In this document: piece after piece, positions 8,719 through 37,320 of the stretch
How the letters are laid out: each line of letters begins with the position of its first letter
Position numbering within the stretch: the stretch's first letter is position 1
Source: Blautia faecicola
GTDB lineage: Bacteria > Bacillota > Clostridia > Lachnospirales > Lachnospiraceae
Length of the DNA stretch: 64,000 bases
NCBI RefSeq assembly: GCF_004123145.1
Contig: NZ_SDKC01000001.1
Span: 2,637,501-2,701,500 of the forward strand
Reading direction: 5' to 3'
Program-made: the position numbers and the translations under genes
The notes under the pieces: model-generated
Databases searched by the model: none
The model's input: only the letters and a program-made list of their open reading frames with translations
What the model was told of the DNA's origin: nothing

Positions 8719-9804
8719 TTACGATTTCTTTTTTGCGGCTCGGATCAGTTCCTCCAGTCCTTTGTTGCATTCTCCGATAGGCACATCGGCACAGATCACT
8801 TTTTTGCATTTTCCCATAACCTGCAGTGCTTTCTGCAGATGCTCCCGGGTGATTCGGTAAAAAGGTTCCTCTGTGATCACCTCAGTGGCCAGAAGGCGGG
8901 CTAACTGATAATCCACATCGTTGGTGTACAGGATGCCTGTTGCAAAGGGGATATTATCCTTTTGTAATTTTCTGTAGATGGGTATTCCCCTTCCGCATCC
9001 GGCGATCACGAAGACCTCCGGCTCCCCCTCAACCTTTGGAAGCTCAATGCTGCCAAATCTTGGATCATAGAATCCGTTTTCGATTCCGTATAATTCCCGG
9101 ATGGTCTGTTCTTCAAAGATCTGTTCCGGAGTTCCGTAATAGCAGACATGATCTCCTTTTACGCAAAGGATCTGATCTGCAATCTTCTGGGCCAGATCGA
9201 TCTCATGGAGAGACATGATCACGGTTATGCCCTTTTCTTTTGCCATAGAGCGGAGAATGGATAACAGTTCCAGCTTATGACGGATATCCAGAAAAGAGGT
9301 AGGCTCATCCAGCACGATGATCTCCGGTTCCTGGCAGATAGCTCTTGCCAGAAGGACTCTCTGGCGCTGCCCGTCACTGATGGCATTAAAATCCCGGCTT
9401 CCCAGTTCTTCCGCATGGACGATCCGCATGGCCTCATCCACTTTATTCTCGTCTTCCCGGCTTAAGATGCCCAGGCGACCCGTATAAGGATAGCGACCGG
9501 TTGCCACAATATCATGACAGGTCATCAGCTCCGGCCGCATGCGTTCTGTCAGGACTACCGCCATCCTGGTGGAAAGTTCTTTGTAAGAAAGCTTGTGCAG
9601 ATCATTTTCTTCATACAAAACCTTACCGCCTAGTATCTTCAGCTGTCGGGTGATACTCTTTAAAATTGTTGATTTTCCGGATCCGTTCGGTCCAATCAGT
9701 GTGACAATCTCTCCTTTATGGATACCTACCTGAATCTGATTGATCAGAGGCTTTCCGTTGTATCCCACCGTCAGCTGATCCAGATGAAAATAATATTCTC
9801 CCAT
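8719..9804 (-). CDS. ABC transporter ATP-binding protein (FecE/BtuD type) with extra C-terminal domain
   Basis: 361 residues; the usual ATPase of this class has about 255. Residues 1-250 are a normal nucleotide-binding domain: Walker A GPNGSGKST (38-46), signature SDGQRQRVLLARA, Walker B IIVLDEPTSFLD and the switch histidine in SLHEIDLA. Residues from about 258 to the end form a separate domain (VFVIAGCGRGIPIYRKLQ...ILYTNDVDYQLARLLATEV) of unknown function. It follows the permease gene by one base. With the riboswitch at the head of the operon, the best reading is energy supply for corrinoid import. Confidence 0.9.
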   Translation of the reverse strand: MGEYYFHLDQLTVGYNGKPLINQIQVGIHKGEIVTLIGPNGSGKSTILKSITRQLKILGGKVLYEENDLHKLSYKELSTRMAVVLTERMRPELMTCHDIVATGRYPYTGRLGILSREDENKVDEAMRIVHAEELGSRDFNAISDGQRQRVLLARAICQEPEIIVLDEPTSFLDIRHKLELLSILRSMAKEKGITVIMSLHEIDLAQKIADQILCVKGDHVCYYGTPEQIFEEQTIRELYGIENGFYDPRFGSIELPKVEGEPEVFVIAGCGRGIPIYRKLQKDNIPFATGILYTNDVDYQLARLLATEVITEEPFYRITREHLQKALQVMGKCKKVICADVPIGECNKGLEELIRAAKKKS

Positions 9805-9805
9805 G

Positions 9806-10870
9806 TCAGTTTCCTTTCTTCCGGTGCAGCATCATGAAAATAACCACCGGCGCACCAAATATAGAAGTCACGGTACTGATATTCAGTTCCAGCGGTGCAA
9901 ATGCCATACGCGCGATCAGATCACACATCATACAGAAGACACCGCCGCCGAGGAAGGTGGCAGGTATCACGACCAGTGGTCTTGAAGTTCCGAGACTGCG
10001 TTTTACCAGATACGGTACCGCGATTCCGACGAAAGAGATCGGTCCCGCGAATGCGGTCACACAGGCGGACAGCACACTCGACGTCAGAATCAGCATGATC
10101 CGGAAAAATTTGATGTTCACACCCATACTCTGTGCATACGCTTCTCCCAGCTGATACGCACCGATCGGCTTTGACATCAGAAACGTGATCAGAATGGTGA
10201 TTCCGATGACGATCACAGCCACTTTTACATTGCTCCAGTTCATGCCGGAAAAGCTTCCCTGACTCCATCCATGCAGATTGACGATGTCCGAGTCCTCCGC
10301 AAAGGTTACCACAAAGTCTGTCACTGCCGAACAGATATATCCGATCATGATACCCGCTACCAGAAGTGTTGCCATATGGTGGATTCTCCGCGATACCAGA
10401 AGGATGAATCCGGTCGCGATCAAGGCACCAATAAATGCCGCGATGATCAGCGTATACGAAGATACCACCTGGAATTTTCCAAGGAAATAGATCATCGCAA
10501 GAGCAACCACCATCTTCGCGCCGGAAGAAATACCCAGCACGAACGGACCGGCAATCGGGTTTTCAAAAAACGTCTGTAATAAAAATCCGGAAAGAGAAAG
10601 GGCTCCTCCAAGAATCGCCGCCATCAGGATACGCGGCAGACGGATCTTCCAGATGATATTGTACTCCATCTTTTCTCCTTCCCGAAGGAAGATGATCCGC
10701 AGAATCTTTGAAATGGAAATATCTACATTTCCCGTATTAATATTCAGAACTGTAATCACACAGAAGGCAGCCACCAGCACCAGAAATACGGTGGTGTATC
10801 TGCTTCTGCGCAGAAAATTTTCATAATGAAAATCGTTCGCTCCCTTCGGAGCTTCCTGTCTTTTTCCCAT
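9806..10870 (-). CDS. FecCD-family ABC transporter permease (putative corrinoid importer)
   Basis: 354 residues from the ATG at 10870, chosen because GGAG lies 6 bases upstream; an in-frame ATG at 10882 lacks a site. It has the FecCD/BtuC pattern of about nine to ten membrane helices, with RLPRILMAAILGGALSLSGFLLQ and NPIAGPFVLGISSGA near the N-terminus, and GPISFVGIAVPYLVK with GGGVFCMMCDLIAR near the C-terminus. The family imports siderophore iron, heme or cobalamin. The upstream cobalamin riboswitch points to corrinoids. The gene is coupled to the ATPase gene. Confidence 0.93.
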   Translation of the reverse strand: MGKRQEAPKGANDFHYENFLRRSRYTTVFLVLVAAFCVITVLNINTGNVDISISKILRIIFLREGEKMEYNIIWKIRLPRILMAAILGGALSLSGFLLQTFFENPIAGPFVLGISSGAKMVVALAMIYFLGKFQVVSSYTLIIAAFIGALIATGFILLVSRRIHHMATLLVAGIMIGYICSAVTDFVVTFAEDSDIVNLHGWSQGSFSGMNWSNVKVAVIVIGITILITFLMSKPIGAYQLGEAYAQSMGVNIKFFRIMLILTSSVLSACVTAFAGPISFVGIAVPYLVKRSLGTSRPLVVIPATFLGGGVFCMMCDLIARMAFAPLELNISTVTSIFGAPVVIFMMLHRKKGN

Positions 10871-10897
10871 TATTTTCTCCATTGTAACTGTTTCATA

Positions 10898-12208
10898 CTA
10901 ATTTACTTTTGTGAGGAAGGTCATATCCTTCTCATCCCCGCCTGTCAGCATCAGATGGAAATCGGTGATCAGCTGACCGACGATATCGGTTGCCTGGTAC
11001 ATGTATTTTCCAACGCACCATACATTGCCGTCCTGCACTGCCTTAAAGTCAGAAAACAGGTCGTTCTTTGCGATCAGTTCGTCCACGGACTGGATCGGAC
11101 TGTCGATGGTGGCGTTGTATACCAGATAATCGGCATCCGCTGCTGTCGCATAGAATTCTTCCATGCTCATCGATACCGAAGCACTGTTGCTCTCTTCATT
11201 TGTCAGATCCTGGAACACATACCGGCCGCCGGCGATCTCGATCATACTCGGGATATAATCTTTCGTTCTTCTGACTACGATGGAACCATCGGTACTTACA
11301 AAGAAGAAGGCTACGGTTTTTTCCGTATTTTCAAAATCTTTCAGATCTTCGATAACTTTTGCCTGCTCGTCAAAGAAGCTGTAGGCTTCCTCTTCTTTAT
11401 CCATCATCGCACCGTAAAGTTTGATCCATTCTGTTCTTCCGAGCGGATGTGTCTCATAACTGGAACGGTCGATAAATACCGGGATGTCCAGGTCTTCGAT
11501 CATTTCCTGAACCTTCGGTGTATGCAGGATCATGGTGGACTCGATGGCGATATCACAGTCCTGGTCGATCAGCATCTCATAATCCGGTTCGCTGTATTTT
11601 CCGGCAAACTGGATCTTGCCGTCTTCCATTGCCTGTTTTGCTTCCTCAATGTACCAGCCGGACGCATCGATTCCGCTCATCTTGATATTGTCGATAGCGT
11701 CCAGGGCACGGAACAGTGCCATCGTGGAACTTGCTGCCAGATAGATTCTGTCCAGAGGTTTTTGCAGTACGATGATACTCTCATCCAGACCTTCCGGTGC
11801 TTCGGCTCCTTCCGGTACCAGCAGATACTGTGCACTGTCGTGTACATCGATCAGCTGATAGTCGTCATCGTAATAGTAGACATCGTAACACTCCGCATAG
11901 TCCAATTTCAGTTTTCCCTGGCAGGTCAGACCGGAAACTTCCGGGGCATCCGGTGCGTCTGTCAGATATGACGTTTCGCTGTCGGCTGTACTCTCTGTAT
12001 CCTCCGCCGTATCCGCTTCTTCTGCGTCTGTGGTATCGGTTTCCTGCTGTTCTTCCGTTTTGGTATCTGCTGCTTCCGTTGTCTGTGTTTCCTTAGAATC
12101 TGCGGAACTGCTCTCGCCGGCTCCTGTTCCGCATCCTGTCAGCATCAGGGCTGCCGCAAGGAAAATGGCTGTCATATGGCTGCATGCTGTGTATATTTTT
12201 TTTCTCAT
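10898..12208 (-). CDS. Substrate-binding lipoprotein of the FecCD-type transporter (putative corrinoid-binding)
   Basis: 436 residues. A lipoprotein signal ends in the lipobox LTGC with Cys26. A Thr/Glu-rich linker (to about 85) precedes a two-lobe class III binding protein. The N-lobe covers roughly 95-285 (KLDYAECYDVYYYDDDYQLIDV, YLLVPEGAE, PVFIDRSSYETHPLGRTEWIKLYGA). The C-lobe runs from about 300 to the end (KTVAFFFVSTDGSIVVRRTKDYI...DGNVWCVGKYMYQ). The N-lobe is clearly related to the C-terminus of the giant protein encoded just upstream. GAGGA lies before the ATG. It likely delivers the ligand to the permease. Confidence 0.88.
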   Translation of the reverse strand: MRKKIYTACSHMTAIFLAAALMLTGCGTGAGESSSADSKETQTTEAADTKTEEQQETDTTDAEEADTAEDTESTADSETSYLTDAPDAPEVSGLTCQGKLKLDYAECYDVYYYDDDYQLIDVHDSAQYLLVPEGAEAPEGLDESIIVLQKPLDRIYLAASSTMALFRALDAIDNIKMSGIDASGWYIEEAKQAMEDGKIQFAGKYSEPDYEMLIDQDCDIAIESTMILHTPKVQEMIEDLDIPVFIDRSSYETHPLGRTEWIKLYGAMMDKEEEAYSFFDEQAKVIEDLKDFENTEKTVAFFFVSTDGSIVVRRTKDYIPSMIEIAGGRYVFQDLTNEESNSASVSMSMEEFYATAADADYLVYNATIDSPIQSVDELIAKNDLFSDFKAVQDGNVWCVGKYMYQATDIVGQLITDFHLMLTGGDEKDMTFLTKVN

Positions 12209-12239
12209 CTTTTTTCCTCGTTTATGTACGATTACCGGA

Positions 12240-12316
12240 AAACAGTCACGTTTCCTTCTGGAGTTCTGACCGCTTCCGGTAATTCGTTAATTCACGTTTT
12301 TTCGTTGTGACTGTTT
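12240..12316 (-). repeat. Inverted repeat in the gap between the giant protein gene and the binding-protein gene
   Basis: Ten-base perfect arms AAACAGTCAC (12240-12249) and GTGACTGTTT (12307-12316) enclose a 57-base loop that can fold further (ATTACCGG can pair with CCGGTAAT just outside the repeat). There is no T-run directly after the arm, so it is not a standard terminator. It could be a processing or stability element that sets different levels for the surface protein and the transporter. Confidence 0.5.
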
Positions 12317-12324
12317 ACTGAAAG

Positions 12325-15300
12325 TTATTTTTTCTTACTCTCCGCAGCTTTTACCACTTTGTTGTATAATTTATCGGTTTTCTTGCTGCATCCGAATACT
12401 GCACCGTATACTTTCAGCCATTCTGCTTTTGCAAGCTCTGTCTTTTCATCTCCCGAACGGTCGACGATCAGCGGTACTTCCAGCGTTGCAAAGTTATCTG
12501 CCAGAGAATCCAGTACCGTGGTTTCTTCTGTATCGGTGTCAGCAGTTGTTGTCTTGCTGTCCGCTGTCTTTGTCTTACTGTCCGTCTTGTCTGTGGAAGT
12601 ATCCGCAGTCTTCGTTGTCTTGCTGTCTTTCTCTTCCTCTTCTTTCGCTGCTTTTTCTGTCTTGCTTCCCGGAAGGATCTCAGAGGATACAATGGCAAGA
12701 TCAACTTTATTTTTCACCAGTTCCCGGAATTTCAGATCTTCTCCGGATCCTACATAGATCATGTCTTCCTCTTCCAGCGCTTCGTTGACTGCATCAATAT
12801 CTGTTTCGTCCTGATCAAATCCCACTGCTGCGATCTTTTTCAGAAGTTTCAGCTCATCCATGGTATTCAGACTTTCCTCAGAATCCACATACGCATGTTT
12901 GACCGGCAGATTGACAACGATCATTTCTTTCTCGATACCAACCGGCAGTTCCACATCAGAATCTTCCGGAACGATCAGATATTTGACAACATTTGCCCGA
13001 TACAGATCTGCGGTACGCTCTTCCTGTGTCTTTCCGATCACTTCACCCTCATCGCTGTAGGTTACGCTCTCGCTGTCTGTGGTTTTGCTGTCTGTTTTTG
13101 TTGTTTTCTTCGTGCTGGTCTTGGAAGCCTTCTTACTGTCTGTCTTTGTAGAAGTTTTCTTTGTATCGGACTTCTTCGTATCGCTGTCTTCCGTGTCTTC
13201 TTTTACCTTATCCGGATCGTTGTCCGTATCTTTTGTCATATCAATTTCCAGAAGTGTTACATCTTTGTCATAATGATAGATTTTAAAATACTTCGCATAA
13301 TCCAGTTTGGTTTCGGATTTGTACTCCAGACCAATGATGTCCGGTGCTTTTTCATCCAGTTTCTTGTTGGTTCCAAAGTTCAGACCGCCGTCTCCGCTTG
13401 CAGAACCGCTGCCGTCTCCGTCAGCTGCTGCCAGATAAACCAGAATACTGTAAGTGATTTCATGTGCGGCGCTCATCTTGGTTGTCATACCGATGATCGT
13501 ATTGTTTTTGTTCAGTTCTACCGGAATGACAAAAATGGATTTTCCGCCGGTATGTGTCGGCAGATATTTGTTTCCGTTTGCTTTTACATACTGATAAGCG
13601 GAACTGCTGAATACGATCGTAGCCAGTGCCTGTCCGTTTTTGATCGTTACCTTGTCACAGGTGATATTGACCTTTCCGGTACCGCCGGACCAGCTGAATT
13701 TGTCCGGTTTGTATACACCGTCTTTCAGTTTCGTCTTGCTGTTGACTGCTTTGGTGGAACCACTGGTGTCGGATTCGTATTTGGATTCGCTATCCGGCTT
13801 GGTGTCCGTTTTTGTTGTGGTATTTCCGGTTGTGTTACCATTTCCGCTGTTGTTGTTTCCTCCGGTCGTACCGTTATTGTTGTTTCCGTTATTTCCGTTG
13901 TTTCCATTGTTGTTATCAGAAACATCACCGATCTTTGTCAGATCTTTGGAACTGAATGTGATGGTTCTGTCGTACCATTTGTCATGGCTTTCGGAATGGG
14001 ACGCTACGGTAATCGGCTGATCGAGTGCGGATACCGGGATCTCGTATGTTCTTCCGGTCTTGGTCCCGCCGTCCAGTGTGTAGGTTGTCGTTCCATTGTA
14101 TTTGATCCAGTTTCCGGTATCGGTTGCCGCATCGGCTGCGCTTCCCATATACAGGTAATCATAGCCAACACCGCTCAGTGTGATCAGTGCTGTCATCTTG
14201 CCGTTTTTCACGGTCAGTTTTGTTCCCACTACTTTGAACATGGCTGCGCCGGTTACAGCACTTGTGCTGTAGATACCATCTGCCGGTGTTCCCTCAGCCG
14301 GAACATCTCCGATCTTCTCCAGATTTTTGGAGCTGATCGTAACAGTTCTGTCATACCACTTCTGCTGACGTTCGGAATGAGACGCCATCGTGAGCGCGGT
14401 ATCCAGTGCGGATACCGGAATCTCATACGTTCTTCCGGTTTTAGTCTCGCCGTCCAGTGTATAGGTAGTTGTTCCGTTGTATTTGATCCAGTTGCCGGTA
14501 TCGGTTGCCGCATCGGCTGCGGTTCCCATATACAGGTAATCATAGCCTTCACCACTTAATGTGATTAATGCTGTCATTTTACCATTTTTCACGGTCAGTT
14601 TGACACCAACCACTTTGAACATGGCTGCACCGGTCTCTGCGGTAGTGTTGTAGATACCGTCTGCCGGAGCATTGGATGGTTCCTGTGTAGGTTCCTGGGA
14701 TGGCGTTGCATCCACATCCGGAGCTTTTGCATCTGCATACGGATCATCCGCGCTCTCTACCTGACTTTTTCCTGTTCCCGCATCTGTGCAGGCTGTCGTC
14801 ATGGTATCCGGAGCCGGAATGGTCATCTGATACGTTCCCTCGGACCATTTTCCGGTTTTCGTGCTGTAGAGTACATAAGAAAATGTCTTTCCGGTAATAT
14901 CTGTGGTGAATCCATCCCAAATATATCCATACGCACCATTGGTCAGTTTCCACAGAGACAGATAATTTCCGCCGTCTCCGCTCTTGATTGCTTTGTTGAT
15001 TTCGTCTCTGGTTCCAAAATACATTCTGTCATAGATATCGCTGTCCGTAGCCATCACCACACGACCAAGTGCTCCACTGGTAACCATGTAGTAACTCTTG
15101 TCTGCGTTGATGATAAAATCTTTTGCATCGGTCGTGAGATTGGCTTTCCGGTAAATGATATCTTCCGGTACATCCCCGATCTTTGTCATAAACTGCGGGA
15201 TCTCCAGATAATCCTGTTTTGTCAGCCATTTTGCTGTTCCTTTTGCGTTATGTAATACAAACGGAACTTTGGTTCCCAGCTGGGATTTTTTCAGGGTGAA

Positions 15301-17763
15301 GGTATATACCCGGTATTCCGGACGGCTCGGATCCGATTCTCCGAGAAGTTTTCCTTCTACTGCATTGGCATCTTTGACATCATCACTGTCTCCGACTTCA
15401 CCGATATACAGTTTATCGTAAGAAGTAGAACCAGAGTAAATGGTAACTGTGATCTCGTCTCCCTTTACCGTGATCGTACTGTCATCTTCAATGTTAAATA
15501 CACCATTCTGCGTATGGGCATTGCCATAAACATCATATATTCCGTTCGGATAGCTTGCCGCATCAAAGGTTTTCCCTACGTTCGGAATCTTGATAAACAG
15601 ATTTCTTCCGCTGGTCAGCCAGCTTCCGTTGGTACGTCCCGGCGTAATCGGAACGTAGATTCCCTGCTGATCTGCAGATACCTGGAAGGTAAATGTGGTC
15701 TGGTCATCTTTCTTTCCAAGATAAATTCTGTCATAGATCGTTCCGTCTACGGTAAATGTAACGGTCACCTGATCGCCGGAGAGTTTCGCAGAAGAACTTA
15801 CTACCTTAAATCCGTTTAATGTTGCCGCAGTACCGCCCTGTTCTATGGTTACACCTGCCTCCGGCAGTTCAACATCTTCGCTTCCCTTTACTTCCGGCAC
15901 AACCAGATACAACTGCTGATTGCTGTACCAGTTACCGTCCGGTTTTCCGAGAACAACCGAAATGGCTTTTCCTGTCAGGCTCTTATCCACGCTGAAGCTG
16001 AATCTCCATACCCCGTTGTCCTGTGTTCCGTTGATCACCGGTGTCTTATTTTCATCACTGTTTTTACCAAGATACAGCTTGTCAAACGATGTGTTTGTGG
16101 TCTCCACGGTCAGATCGATCTTATCTCCATTCACCTTTGCCTCAAAGGTTGAGATCTGGAACATCTTGAATTCTGTTCCGTCCGCTTTGATCACCTGTGC
16201 TTTGGAGGTATCTGACGGTGTCACATCCGGATCCGGTGTTTCGGTCGGTTCCGTGGTCGGCTCCGGGTTTTCCCCGTTACCTTTGAACTCCGGAATCGTC
16301 AGATACAGGTCTGCTCTGCTGTAGAATGTTCCGTTTGCTTTGATCGGTACAAACTGTAATTTTGTTCCTGCTTTGCTCAGCGGAATGCTGAATTTGTATA
16401 CCTGATTGTTATCCTCGTTGATCGTTCCCTCAATGACCGGTGTTTTCTCTTCATCTTCTTTACTTCCCAGGTAAATACCGGTGTATGAGAACTTTCCGGA
16501 TGCATTCGCTTTCAGGTACAGTTCAATATTAATGTTTTCTCCATTCACTGTTGCGGTGGATTTTTCCACATTGAACATCGTAAATGCAGATCCGTCTGCT
16601 TTTTCTGCTGTGATACTGTTTTCCACTTTGCTTCCGTCCGGTACGGATGGTGCCGTGGTCGGTTCCGGATCTGTATCAGTGCTTCCCAGTGTCGGCAGTT
16701 TCAGTGCAATTTTACTGGAACTGAACTTCTGTGTTCTTCCGTTTCTCGGTACAAAGATGACTTCCTGACCATTTTTCTCTGCCGGTACGCTAAACGCGAA
16801 TTTCTCCAGATTCAGCTCAGTATCCACTTCGCCCATTACCAGCGGTTCCTTGGTCTCGTCATCCCATCTTCCGATATACAGTGCATCGTATGTAAACCTT
16901 CCACTGCTCGCCGGACTTACATAGATTTCCACATCGATCTGATCCCCGTTCAGGGTTGCTGAAGATTTTGCAATTTTGAACATGGAATAATCCGTTCCTG
17001 CTTTGTCTCCGTTAGCTTCATCCGTCGCATATACTGCTTTGATTACATTCTCTGCTGTACTGCTGTTGTCTGCTGTGGTAACTACAGATTTCTCTTCTTT
17101 CTGATCCTCTGCCTGCGTCTGCTCTTTTGTCTCTGTCTTTGCAGATGCTGTCTGAGATTTCTCCGGTACCTGGCAGAAGACATCTTCTTTTGTGTACCAC
17201 TCACCGGATGCTTTCATGCCCGGTACGATCTGTAATTTGCTGCCAAGCTTCTCCTCGCTGACGACAAACTGGAAGGTGTACTGTCCGTTCGGACTCTTCT
17301 TTCCTTCTACGACCGTTTTTTTCTCGGTATCTTCTTTCTTTCCTACATATAACTGATCATACACATCGCTGTCTGTATAAACCGTAACCAGGTATTCGTC
17401 TTTGGTTTCAATCAGCTCTGTCTTTGTCACTTTCAGATCCGGTAACTCTTTTACAGTTTCTGCATCCGCTGCACTGTCCTTTGTTTCCGTTGCTGCTTCT
17501 GCTTTTTCCTGTTTACTTTCCGTTTCCTTTTCTTCCTGTGTTGCTTCCTCTTTTACAGGTTCTTTCGTTGTCTCCGAAGTCTCTGTCACCTGCTGTGTAA
17601 CTTCCACAGTCGCTTCCGGCTCTGTTGTCACCGGAACTTCCGCTTCGCTCACCTGCCCGGCCACTTCCGTATCCGGAGCAGCAGCAAATGTGCCCGACGG
17701 CATACCCAGTGCCATCATTACAGACAGAGATACCGAAAGTACTCTCTTTCCTGTTCCTTTCAT
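12325..17763 (-). CDS. Giant secreted multi-repeat surface protein ending in a half substrate-binding domain
   Basis: 1812 residues. Signal peptide 1-28 (VSLSVMMALGMPSGTFAAA), then a Thr/Glu-rich stretch to about 104. Ten beta-rich repeats of about 95-130 residues follow, starting near 106, 256, 380, 523, 631, 734, 868, 1034, 1161 and 1345. Nine share a core Y/F-x-x-[LIM]-Y-x-G (YDQLYVG, YDALYIG, FDKLYLG, YDRIYLG, YDYLYMG). Pro/Thr and Asn/Gly linkers separate them. From about 1474 to the end the chain matches the N-lobe of the neighbouring lipoprotein (KLDYAKYFKIYHYDKD, KYLIVPEDSD, VPLIVDRSG, AKAEWLKVYGAVFG), with two Ser/Lys/Thr/Asp-rich insertions, and stops where the C-lobe would begin. 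No LPXTG or membrane anchor is seen. It heads the riboswitch-controlled operon. Surface capture of corrinoid is an inference; repeat fold and ligand are unknown. Confidence 0.85.
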   Translation of the reverse strand: MKGTGKRVLSVSLSVMMALGMPSGTFAAAPDTEVAGQVSEAEVPVTTEPEATVEVTQQVTETSETTKEPVKEEATQEEKETESKQEKAEAATETKDSAADAETVKELPDLKVTKTELIETKDEYLVTVYTDSDVYDQLYVGKKEDTEKKTVVEGKKSPNGQYTFQFVVSEEKLGSKLQIVPGMKASGEWYTKEDVFCQVPEKSQTASAKTETKEQTQAEDQKEEKSVVTTADNSSTAENVIKAVYATDEANGDKAGTDYSMFKIAKSSATLNGDQIDVEIYVSPASSGRFTYDALYIGRWDDETKEPLVMGEVDTELNLEKFAFSVPAEKNGQEVIFVPRNGRTQKFSSSKIALKLPTLGSTDTDPEPTTAPSVPDGSKVENSITAEKADGSAFTMFNVEKSTATVNGENINIELYLKANASGKFSYTGIYLGSKEDEEKTPVIEGTINEDNNQVYKFSIPLSKAGTKLQFVPIKANGTFYSRADLYLTIPEFKGNGENPEPTTEPTETPDPDVTPSDTSKAQVIKADGTEFKMFQISTFEAKVNGDKIDLTVETTNTSFDKLYLGKNSDENKTPVINGTQDNGVWRFSFSVDKSLTGKAISVVLGKPDGNWYSNQQLYLVVPEVKGSEDVELPEAGVTIEQGGTAATLNGFKVVSSSAKLSGDQVTVTFTVDGTIYDRIYLGKKDDQTTFTFQVSADQQGIYVPITPGRTNGSWLTSGRNLFIKIPNVGKTFDAASYPNGIYDVYGNAHTQNGVFNIEDDSTITVKGDEITVTIYSGSTSYDKLYIGEVGDSDDVKDANAVEGKLLGESDPSRPEYRVYTFTLKKSQLGTKVPFVLHNAKGTAKWLTKQDYLEIPQFMTKIGDVPEDIIYRKANLTTDAKDFIINADKSYYMVTSGALGRVVMATDSDIYDRMYFGTRDEINKAIKSGDGGNYLSLWKLTNGAYGYIWDGFTTDITGKTFSYVLYSTKTGKWSEGTYQMTIPAPDTMTTACTDAGTGKSQVESADDPYADAKAPDVDATPSQEPTQEPSNAPADGIYNTTAETGAAMFKVVGVKLTVKNGKMTALITLSGEGYDYLYMGTAADAATDTGNWIKYNGTTTYTLDGETKTGRTYEIPVSALDTALTMASHSERQQKWYDRTVTISSKNLEKIGDVPAEGTPADGIYSTSAVTGAAMFKVVGTKLTVKNGKMTALITLSGVGYDYLYMGSAADAATDTGNWIKYNGTTTYTLDGGTKTGRTYEIPVSALDQPITVASHSESHDKWYDRTITFSSKDLTKIGDVSDNNNGNNGNNGNNNNGTTGGNNNSGNGNTTGNTTTKTDTKPDSESKYESDTSGSTKAVNSKTKLKDGVYKPDKFSWSGGTGKVNITCDKVTIKNGQALATIVFSSSAYQYVKANGNKYLPTHTGGKSIFVIPVELNKNNTIIGMTTKMSAAHEITYSILVYLAAADGDGSGSASGDGGLNFGTNKKLDEKAPDIIGLEYKSETKLDYAKYFKIYHYDKDVTLLEIDMTKDTDNDPDKVKEDTEDSDTKKSDTKKTSTKTDSKKASKTSTKKTTKTDSKTTDSESVTYSDEGEVIGKTQEERTADLYRANVVKYLIVPEDSDVELPVGIEKEMIVVNLPVKHAYVDSEESLNTMDELKLLKKIAAVGFDQDETDIDAVNEALEEEDMIYVGSGEDLKFRELVKNKVDLAIVSSEILPGSKTEKAAKEEEEKDSKTTKTADTSTDKTDSKTKTADSKTTTADTDTEETTVLDSLADNFATLEVPLIVDRSGDEKTELAKAEWLKVYGAVFGCSKKTDKLYNKVVKAAESKKK

Positions 17764-17853
17764 CTCACATTTCCTTTCTTTATAAATGTATCATCTGTGG
17801 CGGTCAAACGAGAAGTGACCGTAAACCCGTCAGCATACAAGTTTCCTGAACAT

Positions 17854-17895
17854 AAAAAAGTAGCCATATCCTTCTCAAAAGTCAGATACAACTAC
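17854..17895 (-). terminator. Riboswitch expression-platform terminator
   Basis: On the minus strand GTAGTTGTATC pairs with GATATGGCTAC (11 pairs including G-U) around a 14-base loop and is followed at once by six T. It lies between the cobalamin aptamer and the giant protein gene. A competing upstream hairpin (ACAG...CTGTAG) shares the GTAG part of the first arm and could be the antiterminator. This is a transcription-termination design: ligand bound, transcription stops. Confidence 0.65.
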
Positions 17896-17986
17896 AGACA
17901 CACAATCCCTGTCTTCAGACTGAAACAACATAATAATGCTTTTCGATCTTTTGGAGTTCTGCTTTCTTCGGAAGCTCATCACCAAC

Positions 17987-18166
17987 TTTCCCAGCAGGTT
18001 TTCTGACTCACAGATCATCGCCTTGTCAAACCTTCTCACATGATCTCTCCATGCAATGGCATCCCATGACAACACTCCCTGTTCACAGTGACCGGATCGT
18101 TCAGGACTCCCACCTGATTCCCTATTATCCCCGCAGCAGCAACCGCCACCTTGAGGCACTGGAAAA
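17987..18166 (-). ncRNA. Cobalamin riboswitch aptamer
   Basis: Read on the minus strand it has the cobalamin aptamer landmarks in order: P1 5' arm TTTTCCAG (18166-18159), GTGCC, the core AGGGAATCAGGTG (18123-18111), GATCCGGTCACTGTGA, a large variable arm, then the B12-box-like GTCAGAAAACCTGC (18007-17994) and the closing P1 arm CTGGGAAA (17994-17987). Family knowledge: such riboswitches bind coenzyme B12 and switch off transport and synthesis genes. It lies upstream of the giant surface protein and ABC transporter genes and assigns the operon to corrinoid uptake. Confidence 0.88.
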
Positions 18167-18180
18167 CTCTGTCATCAGTA

Positions 18181-18208
18181 AGTATAACAAAGTCCCCAAA
18201 TAAGTCAA
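18181..18208 (-). promoter_or_regulatory. Sigma-A promoter of the cobalamin-riboswitch operon
   Basis: Minus strand: -35 TTGACT (18208-18203), spacer 16, -10 TATACT (18186-18181). The predicted start lies about 8 bases before the aptamer P1 arm, which fits a riboswitch leader. The rest of the gap up to 18404 is A/T-rich with one short palindrome (ACATATTTTAAATATGT, 18319-18335) and no gene. Confidence 0.7.
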
Positions 18209-37106: not shown

Positions 37107-37320
37107 CATGTTATGATATTGGGGGCAAAAGATATTTTGCCCCCTTTGATACCGGATTGTTCTGTACTTCGTACTCTCACAATCCACAAAAACATTCGCA
37201 ATCCGCTCATTTTTCTTCGAAAAATGGCTACTTACTCATGTTTTTTGGCGGGTCAAAAGTTCAGAAATCTTCCTGCAAGCAAGCTTGCGTCAGATTTCCG
37301 ACCTTTTGACCCTGGTATCA
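37107..37320. repeat. Highly structured 210-base intergenic element with four stem-loops and imperfect terminal repeats
   Basis: Four hairpins in a row: GGGGGCAAAA/TTTTGCCCCC (37121-37144), GGATTGT/ACAATCC with inner GTAC/GTAC (37154-37185), CATTTTT/AAAAATG (37208-37226), and GGGTCAAAAG/CTTTTGACCC with inner pairs AGAAATCT/AGATTTC and GCAAGC/GCTTGC (37250-37312). The outer ends are imperfect inverted repeats of each other (ATGATATTGGGGGCAAAAG versus the complement of the other end, ATGATACCAGGGTCAAAAG). No reading frame of note. It could be a small non-autonomous mobile element or a structured RNA. Confidence 0.6.

What the first reader, a model, noticed from the sequence alone, without database searches (positions are those of the whole stretch)
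8719..18208. Cobalamin-riboswitch operon with a giant secreted repeat protein: candidate Gram-positive surface system for corrinoid capture
One promoter, a cobalamin aptamer and an intrinsic terminator precede four genes that are close together on one strand: an 1812-residue secreted protein, a binding lipoprotein, a FecCD permease and an ATPase. Seen directly: the riboswitch landmarks, the signal peptide, ten related repeats and the transporter motifs. Known: cobalamin riboswitches control corrinoid uptake. Inferred: the giant protein catches corrinoids at the cell surface and hands them to the lipoprotein, a Gram-positive counterpart of the outer surface B12 proteins of Bacteroides. Its size and repeat design do not match any B12 protein I know.
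Basis: partly seen in the sequence, partly recalled or inferred. Interest (0 to 1): 0.88.

Follow-up and report, generated by a model that had tools for sequence, protein, structure and literature searches.

The report
Gut bacterial surface vitamin-B12 capture operon
A gut bacterium makes, under a vitamin B12 RNA switch, a giant secreted protein built from ten copies of a heme-hemophore-type domain joined to half of a transport-binding protein; it most likely catches vitamin B12-like molecules outside the cell and passes them to an importer.

The parts
18181..18208 (-). putative sigma-70 promoter TTGACT-16-TATACT
   Evidence: 10 of 12 matches; no excess over shuffles, supported by position only
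17976..18174 (-). cobalamin riboswitch aptamer
   Evidence: RF00174 80.6 bits, E 2.9e-18; own model R1 147.1 bits, but this sequence is a row of that model
17854..17895 (-). leader hairpin followed by six U, candidate intrinsic terminator
   Evidence: RNA fold -19.2 kcal/mol, 7 of 200 shuffles as good
12325..17763 (-). 1812-aa secreted multi-NEAT protein
   Evidence: ORF; signal peptide by eye at residues 1-28; no LPxTG-like motif
17152..17463 (-). repeat R1 (NEAT-like)
16684..17013 (-). repeat R2 (NEAT-like)
16276..16614 (-). repeat R3 (NEAT-like)
15880..16194 (-). repeat R4 (NEAT-like)
15568..15837 (-). repeat R5 (NEAT-like, shortened)
15181..15552 (-). repeat R6 (NEAT-like)
14800..15165 (-). 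repeat R7 (NEAT-like)
14308..14664 (-). repeat R8 (NEAT-like); structure predicted
13924..14283 (-). repeat R9 (NEAT-like), 85% identical to R8
13408..13725 (-). repeat R10, second NEAT-like subtype with a Cys and a His invariant in 18 rows
12328..13365 (-). C-terminal half substrate-binding protein (N-lobe only)
10898..12208 (-). substrate-binding lipoprotein (BtuF-like)
   Evidence: Peripla_BP_2 E 9.7e-41; lipobox LTGC by eye; the only match of that family in the genome at E <= 0.001
9806..10882 (-). FecCD permease (BtuC-like)
   Evidence: FecCD E 3e-78; best NCBIfam match is BtuC, below its cut-off
8719..9804 (-). ABC ATPase with C-terminal extension (BtuD-like)
   Evidence: the extension 8722-9057 matches only PRK09536 corrinoid ATPase in NCBIfam, 21.1 bits, E 1.4e-4

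Best explanation
This is a cobalamin-riboswitch-controlled corrinoid acquisition operon of a Gram-positive gut bacterium (inferred to be of the genus of Oliverpabstia intestinalis). When intracellular B12 is low the leader is read through. A secreted string of NEAT-fold domains, related to heme hemophores but mostly lacking their usual heme-ligand motif, binds corrinoids outside the membrane and holds or relays them. The chain ends in a second NEAT subtype and half of a FecCD-class binding protein, which docks on the membrane partners (most likely the lipoprotein) and hands the ligand to the lipoprotein, permease and ATPase for import. Shown here: riboswitch, gene order, NEAT fold of two predicted repeats, half-binding-protein fold, and family-wide linkage to cobalamin riboswitches and corrin genes. 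Inferred: corrinoid binding, the relay, and docking of the half protein.
For: Cobalamin aptamer directly upstream. NEAT fold of R8 and R10 and profile homology to canonical NEATs (hhalign 94.8%, E 4.9e-8 for the single pair). Homologues with cobalamin riboswitches: Rfam in 32 of 38 regions scanned; own model on the same strand in 53 of 79 named loci, at a median of 161 nt before the first gene of the system and within 500 nt in 51 of 53; Rfam agreed in 9 of 9 loci re-checked. Corrin-gene motifs in 45 of 79 loci, 10 of 10 genes tested confirmed as CbiD, CobQ/CbiP, CobA/BtuR, CbiA or CbiE-CbiT; union 67 of 79. Canonical NEAT control regions: 0 of 11 for both. The order giant, binding protein, permease, ATPase is found in 17 of 21 giant loci. 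A second copy of the domain in the same genome is fused to a secreted CbiK behind its own cobalamin riboswitch.
Against: No binding data. The lipoprotein's nearest NCBIfam and PDB sequence matches are heme-type (IsdE 40.5 bits; Lmo2184 E 3.5e-5), though weak. The host has CbiC, so it probably makes corrin rings itself and need not depend on uptake. No LPxTG-like anchor was found, so retention at the surface is unexplained. Some homologues with upstream sequence lack a riboswitch (L061 = L099, L069). 12 of 79 loci show neither signal, though one of them, L152, has CbiE-CbiT next door. The Glu-to-Lys/Arg change could also mean that the half protein does not dock at all.
Confidence: 0.68

Rival explanations
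1. A heme or porphyrin hemophore system that happens to be B12-controlled: the NEAT repeats bind heme as in Isd systems and the lipoprotein is IsdE-like.
For: NEAT is a heme-binding family and the best structural matches include many heme-bound NEATs; lipoprotein best NCBIfam match IsdE, 40.5 bits; only PDB sequence match Lmo2184.
Against: No YxxxY near the C-terminus in 85 of 87 repeats; separate canonical NEAT loci exist in the same bacterial family without cobalamin riboswitches or corrin-gene motifs; corrin biosynthesis neighbours.
Confidence: 0.1
2. Capture of cobalt, or of a cobalt-tetrapyrrole precursor, rather than finished corrinoids: the domain works with CbiK to load or deliver cobalt for corrin synthesis.
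For: CbiK lies in the same locus in 53 of 79, and 30 of 52 such genes have a lipobox-like start; patterns GTVE-type and DHA-type are kept in 54 of 54 CbiK domains, a GHG-type pattern in 36 of 54; the host also has a third CbiK in a 265-aa frame without room for the long secreted N-terminus.
Against: The giant's operon in the window has no CbiK, and its transporter is of the BtuCD/FecCD class.
Confidence: 0.12
3. A retention system: the bacterium makes corrinoids and the secreted chain recaptures those that leak from it.
For: CbiC present in the host; homologous systems often lie inside corrin-synthesis clusters.
Against: Shares the binding step with the best explanation and cannot be separated from scavenging by sequence.
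Confidence: 0.08
4. An adhesin or structural surface protein with no corrinoid ligand.
For: Large, repetitive, secreted protein with low-complexity linkers.
Against: Conserved operon with a binding protein, permease and ATPase, terminal half binding protein, B12 regulation.
Confidence: 0.02

Closest known systems
NEAT-domain heme hemophores (Isd systems; IsdX2, Hbp2)
   Same: NEAT fold; tandem domains in a secreted protein (recalled for these hemophores); a FecCD-class binding protein and permease beside them
   Different: cobalamin riboswitch in the leader; YxxxY near the C-terminus missing in 85 of 87 rows; ten domains here; terminal half binding protein; below Pfam's NEAT cut-off
BtuFCD vitamin B12 importer
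   Same: Peripla_BP_2 protein, FecCD permease and ATPase behind a cobalamin riboswitch; ATPase extension weakly like the PRK09536 corrinoid ATPase
   Different: preceded by a giant NEAT-repeat protein; NCBIfam equivalog cut-offs for BtuC and PRK09536 not reached
BtuG, BtuH and DUF4465 surface B12 proteins of Bacteroides (PMC6143338: listing abstract; PMC13398666: listing abstract and one passage; PMC8941943: listing abstract and passages)
   Same: surface-exposed or secreted accessory proteins in cobamide transport loci with riboswitches; PMC8941943 also predicts btuH homologues in three Firmicutes species
   Different: beta-propeller or jellyroll folds, mainly in Bacteroidetes; here a NEAT fold in a Gram-positive
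CbiK anaerobic cobalt chelatase
   Same: fused to, or next to, the same domain in sister operons
   Different: not part of the giant's operon; 30 of 52 sister copies have a lipobox-like start

Membership tests
Cobalamin riboswitch RF00174 | covariance model score above gathering | tested here: met
   80.6 bits vs 31.5
NEAT superfamily (fold) | NEAT beta sandwich | tested here: met
Canonical NEAT family PF05031 | Pfam gathering score 32.8 | tested here: not met
   R8 20.5 bits; best of the eight proteins tried, L083, 28.5 bits; no match at E <= 0.001 in G000
Canonical NEAT family PF05031 | YxxxY heme-ligand motif (recalled) in the last strand | tested here: not met
   pattern in the last 32 residues of 2 of 87 rows, one of those ahead of the last strand; R8 lacks it
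Canonical NEAT family PF05031 | heme binding | not testable with these tools
   needs protein
Class III substrate-binding protein (for the giant's C-terminus) | two lobes | tested here: not met
   only the N-lobe is matched and the protein ends there
BtuFCD importer | Peripla_BP_2 + FecCD + ABC_tran genes in one gene row | tested here: met
BtuFCD importer | NCBIfam BtuC and corrinoid ATPase equivalog cut-offs | tested here: not met
   212.5 of 334 and 190.3 of 537 bits
BtuFCD importer | corrinoid transport | not testable with these tools
   needs uptake assay
Isd system | sortase-anchored (LPXTG-type) surface proteins (recalled) | tested here: not met
   no LPxTG-like motif in the giant
BtuG/BtuH/DUF4465 B12 surface proteins | beta-propeller or DUF4465 domain | tested here: not met
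   Pfam on the giant lists only a C2 match at E 0.72

The most novel reading that the evidence does not exclude
A widespread, undescribed class of Gram-positive surface corrinoid-capture systems in which NEAT domains were switched from heme to corrinoids. Multi-domain chains end in a half binding protein whose reversed charge lets it clasp the importer's own binding protein for direct hand-off, and sister operons join the same domain to a secreted cobalt chelatase, so that cobalt-tetrapyrrole handling takes place outside the cell.
Probability: 0.4. Interest if true: 0.92.

Novelty: new variant of a known kind. Interest (0 to 1): 0.8.

Why it matters
Competition for B12 shapes gut communities, and surface capture has been worked out for Bacteroides; [quoted passage not shown] This work gives Clostridia a concrete, testable candidate apparatus with a recognisable domain, so that many unannotated secreted proteins and lipoprotein-like CbiK proteins can be assigned a role. 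It would also be a clear case of a heme-binding scaffold re-used for another metallo-tetrapyrrole.

Tried and rejected
Sequence search of PDB with the repeat profile gave nothing meaningful; fold comparison, profile-profile comparison and sub-threshold Pfam hits showed NEAT. Pfam on the whole giant listed only C2 at E 0.72. ProI and sulfate-ATPase NCBIfam hits on the repeat (E 9.9e-5 and 0.07, far below their cut-offs) were judged chance. The guess that the 766-aa protein of L017 ends in a DUF4430 (transcobalamin-like, recalled) domain got only E 0.017, 16 bits against a 23.8 cut-off, and no PDB sequence match; not claimed. A Foldseek 'pdb' listing was collected only for R8; the R10 + C-terminal model had VIA only. 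I did not test Fur or iron boxes. The hhalign comparison is a single pair; its canonical side, A7, has ten rows, nine of them from matches over the Pfam cut-off. Base rate: G000 has 6 cobalamin riboswitches in 3.74 Mb, so chance adjacency within 1 kb is about 0.2% per gene.

Counting limits: the 40 regions were chosen by hand from the (cut) match list. Rfam scanned 38 of them; a hit means a riboswitch in the region (in L079 it lies after the repeat gene and before CbiK). L070 and L071 were scanned only with model R1, which hit L071 and not L070. Rfam misses: L072, L061, L062, L065, L067, L069; in L072, L062, L065 and L067 the repeat gene is at or close to a contig end. One search kept the best 80 of 108 relatives (79 loci). 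By equal contig lengths nine of them repeat contigs of L052-L066 (L092, L094, L095, L098, L099, L100, L103, L106, L110), and six of those (L092, L094, L098, L103, L106, L110) correspond to rows used to build R1. L156 and L159 overlap on one contig. Of the 53 riboswitch loci, L169 has it after the matched repeat gene and before a second system. Two weak matches on the other loci (L158, L117; E 0.011 and 0.019) were not counted. Of the 26 loci without a same-strand riboswitch, 15 have the first gene of the system within 1 kb of a contig end. Corrin-gene counts (37 core, 45 any) rest on short peptide motifs recalled by me; 10 genes were checked by NCBIfam. The Glu versus Lys/Arg count used 55 full binding proteins without repeats and 17 half proteins that passed score filters. 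My note said 22 giant loci; the recount leaves out L152, a fusion with a full binding protein, and gives 21.

Full report
The observation. On the minus strand, 18208 to 8719, a promoter-like site, an aptamer and a hairpin precede four close genes. Rfam scores the leader as a cobalamin riboswitch at 80.6 bits, full length. A 12-pair hairpin followed by six U lies between aptamer and start codon, as expected of a transcription-terminating switch. The genes encode an 1812-aa secreted protein, a Peripla_BP_2 lipoprotein, a FecCD permease and an ABC ATPase, spaced 116, 15 and 1 nt. The lipoprotein is the only Peripla_BP_2 protein that the family search found in the 3.74-Mb genome at E <= 0.001. The genome holds six cobalamin riboswitches and CbiC, so it probably makes corrin rings. 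The genus is inferred to be that of Oliverpabstia intestinalis, because the same-genus genome G102 has a contig of the same length as the named O. intestinalis record.

Family and context. With the repeat profile, 107 of 299 genomes of the same family have the domain. Two operon types recur. Type A is giant, binding protein, permease, ATPase; that order is found in 17 of the 21 giant loci among L092-L170 (L096 has the giant last, L099, L100 and L104 show part). Type B is CbiK, with the domain fused to it or next to it, usually with binding protein and permease; 30 of 52 CbiK genes have a lipobox-like start. In the window's genome, type B is present as two secreted CbiK genes, each behind a cobalamin riboswitch, the second with one repeat at its C-terminus, besides a third CbiK in a 265-aa frame.

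Linkage to cobalamin. Rfam found RF00174 in 19 of 20, 8 of 8 and 5 of 10 regions. A model built from 26 of these leaders found a same-strand match in 53 of 79 named loci, including Clostridium sulfidigenes and Hornefia butyriciproducens; the first gene of the system starts a median of 161 nt further on, within 500 nt in 51 of 53. Rfam agreed in 9 of 9 checked. Corrin-gene motifs occur in 45 of 79 loci, and 10 of 10 genes tested by NCBIfam are corrin enzymes. Together 67 of 79 have one or both. As a control, 11 regions from nine genomes of the same family whose NEAT passes the Pfam cut-off (9 of 120 genomes searched) gave 0 of 11 riboswitches, 0 of 11 corrin motifs and no match to the repeat profile at E < 1. 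So two separate NEAT-based worlds exist in this family: one canonical, and one tied to B12.

Results against. The lipoprotein's best named matches are heme-type, though weak. Of 21 giant loci, four have no riboswitch in the held sequence: L099, L100, L102, L118. L100, L102 and L118 start within 1 kb of a contig end; L099 has 6.6 kb upstream and none. L069 also lacks one. 12 of 79 loci have neither riboswitch nor motif, one of which, L152, has CbiE-CbiT next door. No LPxTG-like anchor was found.

Mechanism. Low B12 opens the leader. The chain of NEAT-fold domains is secreted, binds corrinoids and passes them along to R10 and the half binding protein, which meets the lipoprotein; permease and ATPase import. 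Regulation and the presence of an importer rest on strong evidence; binding and relay are inferred by analogy with Isd relays.

Literature. 'NEAT domain' with 'cobalamin riboswitch' gave no paper; with 'cobalamin' five, incidental by their listings; with 'Clostridia' and 'riboswitch' none. A broader search of five terms held 781 papers, of which 15 were listed, none with 'NEAT domain'. Searches on CbiK with cobalamin riboswitch (18 listed), DUF4430 (2), surface protein and riboswitch terms (1) and Lachnospiraceae uptake (10) listed no title on such a system. Passages of PMC12670364, PMC8941943, PMC6593275 and PMC13398666 were seen, the listing abstract of PMC6143338, and a find in PMC12751083 returned none of its terms. 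The library holds only open-licence papers, so this is not proof of absence.

Noticed in passing
L016 2673-12205 and L017 69-14476 (G000:C1 about 177172-200000): Cobalamin riboswitch (44.5 bits) upstream of two secreted beta-propeller/cadherin-like proteins with dockerins, two cohesin proteins (one with a dockerin, one with an anchor-like C-terminus), a transglutaminase-family protein and a 1661-aa surface protein: a possible cohesin-dockerin surface complex under B12 control. Three of the four dockerin matches found in the genome lie here.
   Followed up: partly
L013 5314-9412: Two tandem secreted CbiK cobalt chelatases, each with its own cobalamin riboswitch; the second carries one NEAT-like repeat.
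   Followed up: yes
L014 3981-9608: Cobalamin riboswitch before an SBP_bac_5 (oligopeptide/nickel type) ABC transporter: candidate cobalt, corrinoid or peptide importer.
   Followed up: no
L015 9580-9777: Cobalamin riboswitch followed by about 570 nt without an obvious gene, then a GH2 beta-mannosidase-like gene; perhaps a remnant.
   Followed up: partly
L056, L108, L114, L128, L136, L167: Double-CbiK fusions: two chelatase domains in one protein, with the repeat domain after or between them except in the 1595-aa protein of L167.
   Followed up: no
L128, L136, L142, L156, L159, L162: Back-to-back cobalamin riboswitches on opposite strands within a few hundred bases.
   Followed up: no
L169 908-9402: Repeat protein with a C-terminal membrane segment (by eye) beside genes that look like HemL, HemC, CobA/HemD and CbiL (by eye), an ABC-2-like transporter and a CbiK without signal peptide.
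   Followed up: partly
window 37147-37320: Clostridiales-1 RNA (RF01699), 134.1 bits, minus strand.
   Followed up: no
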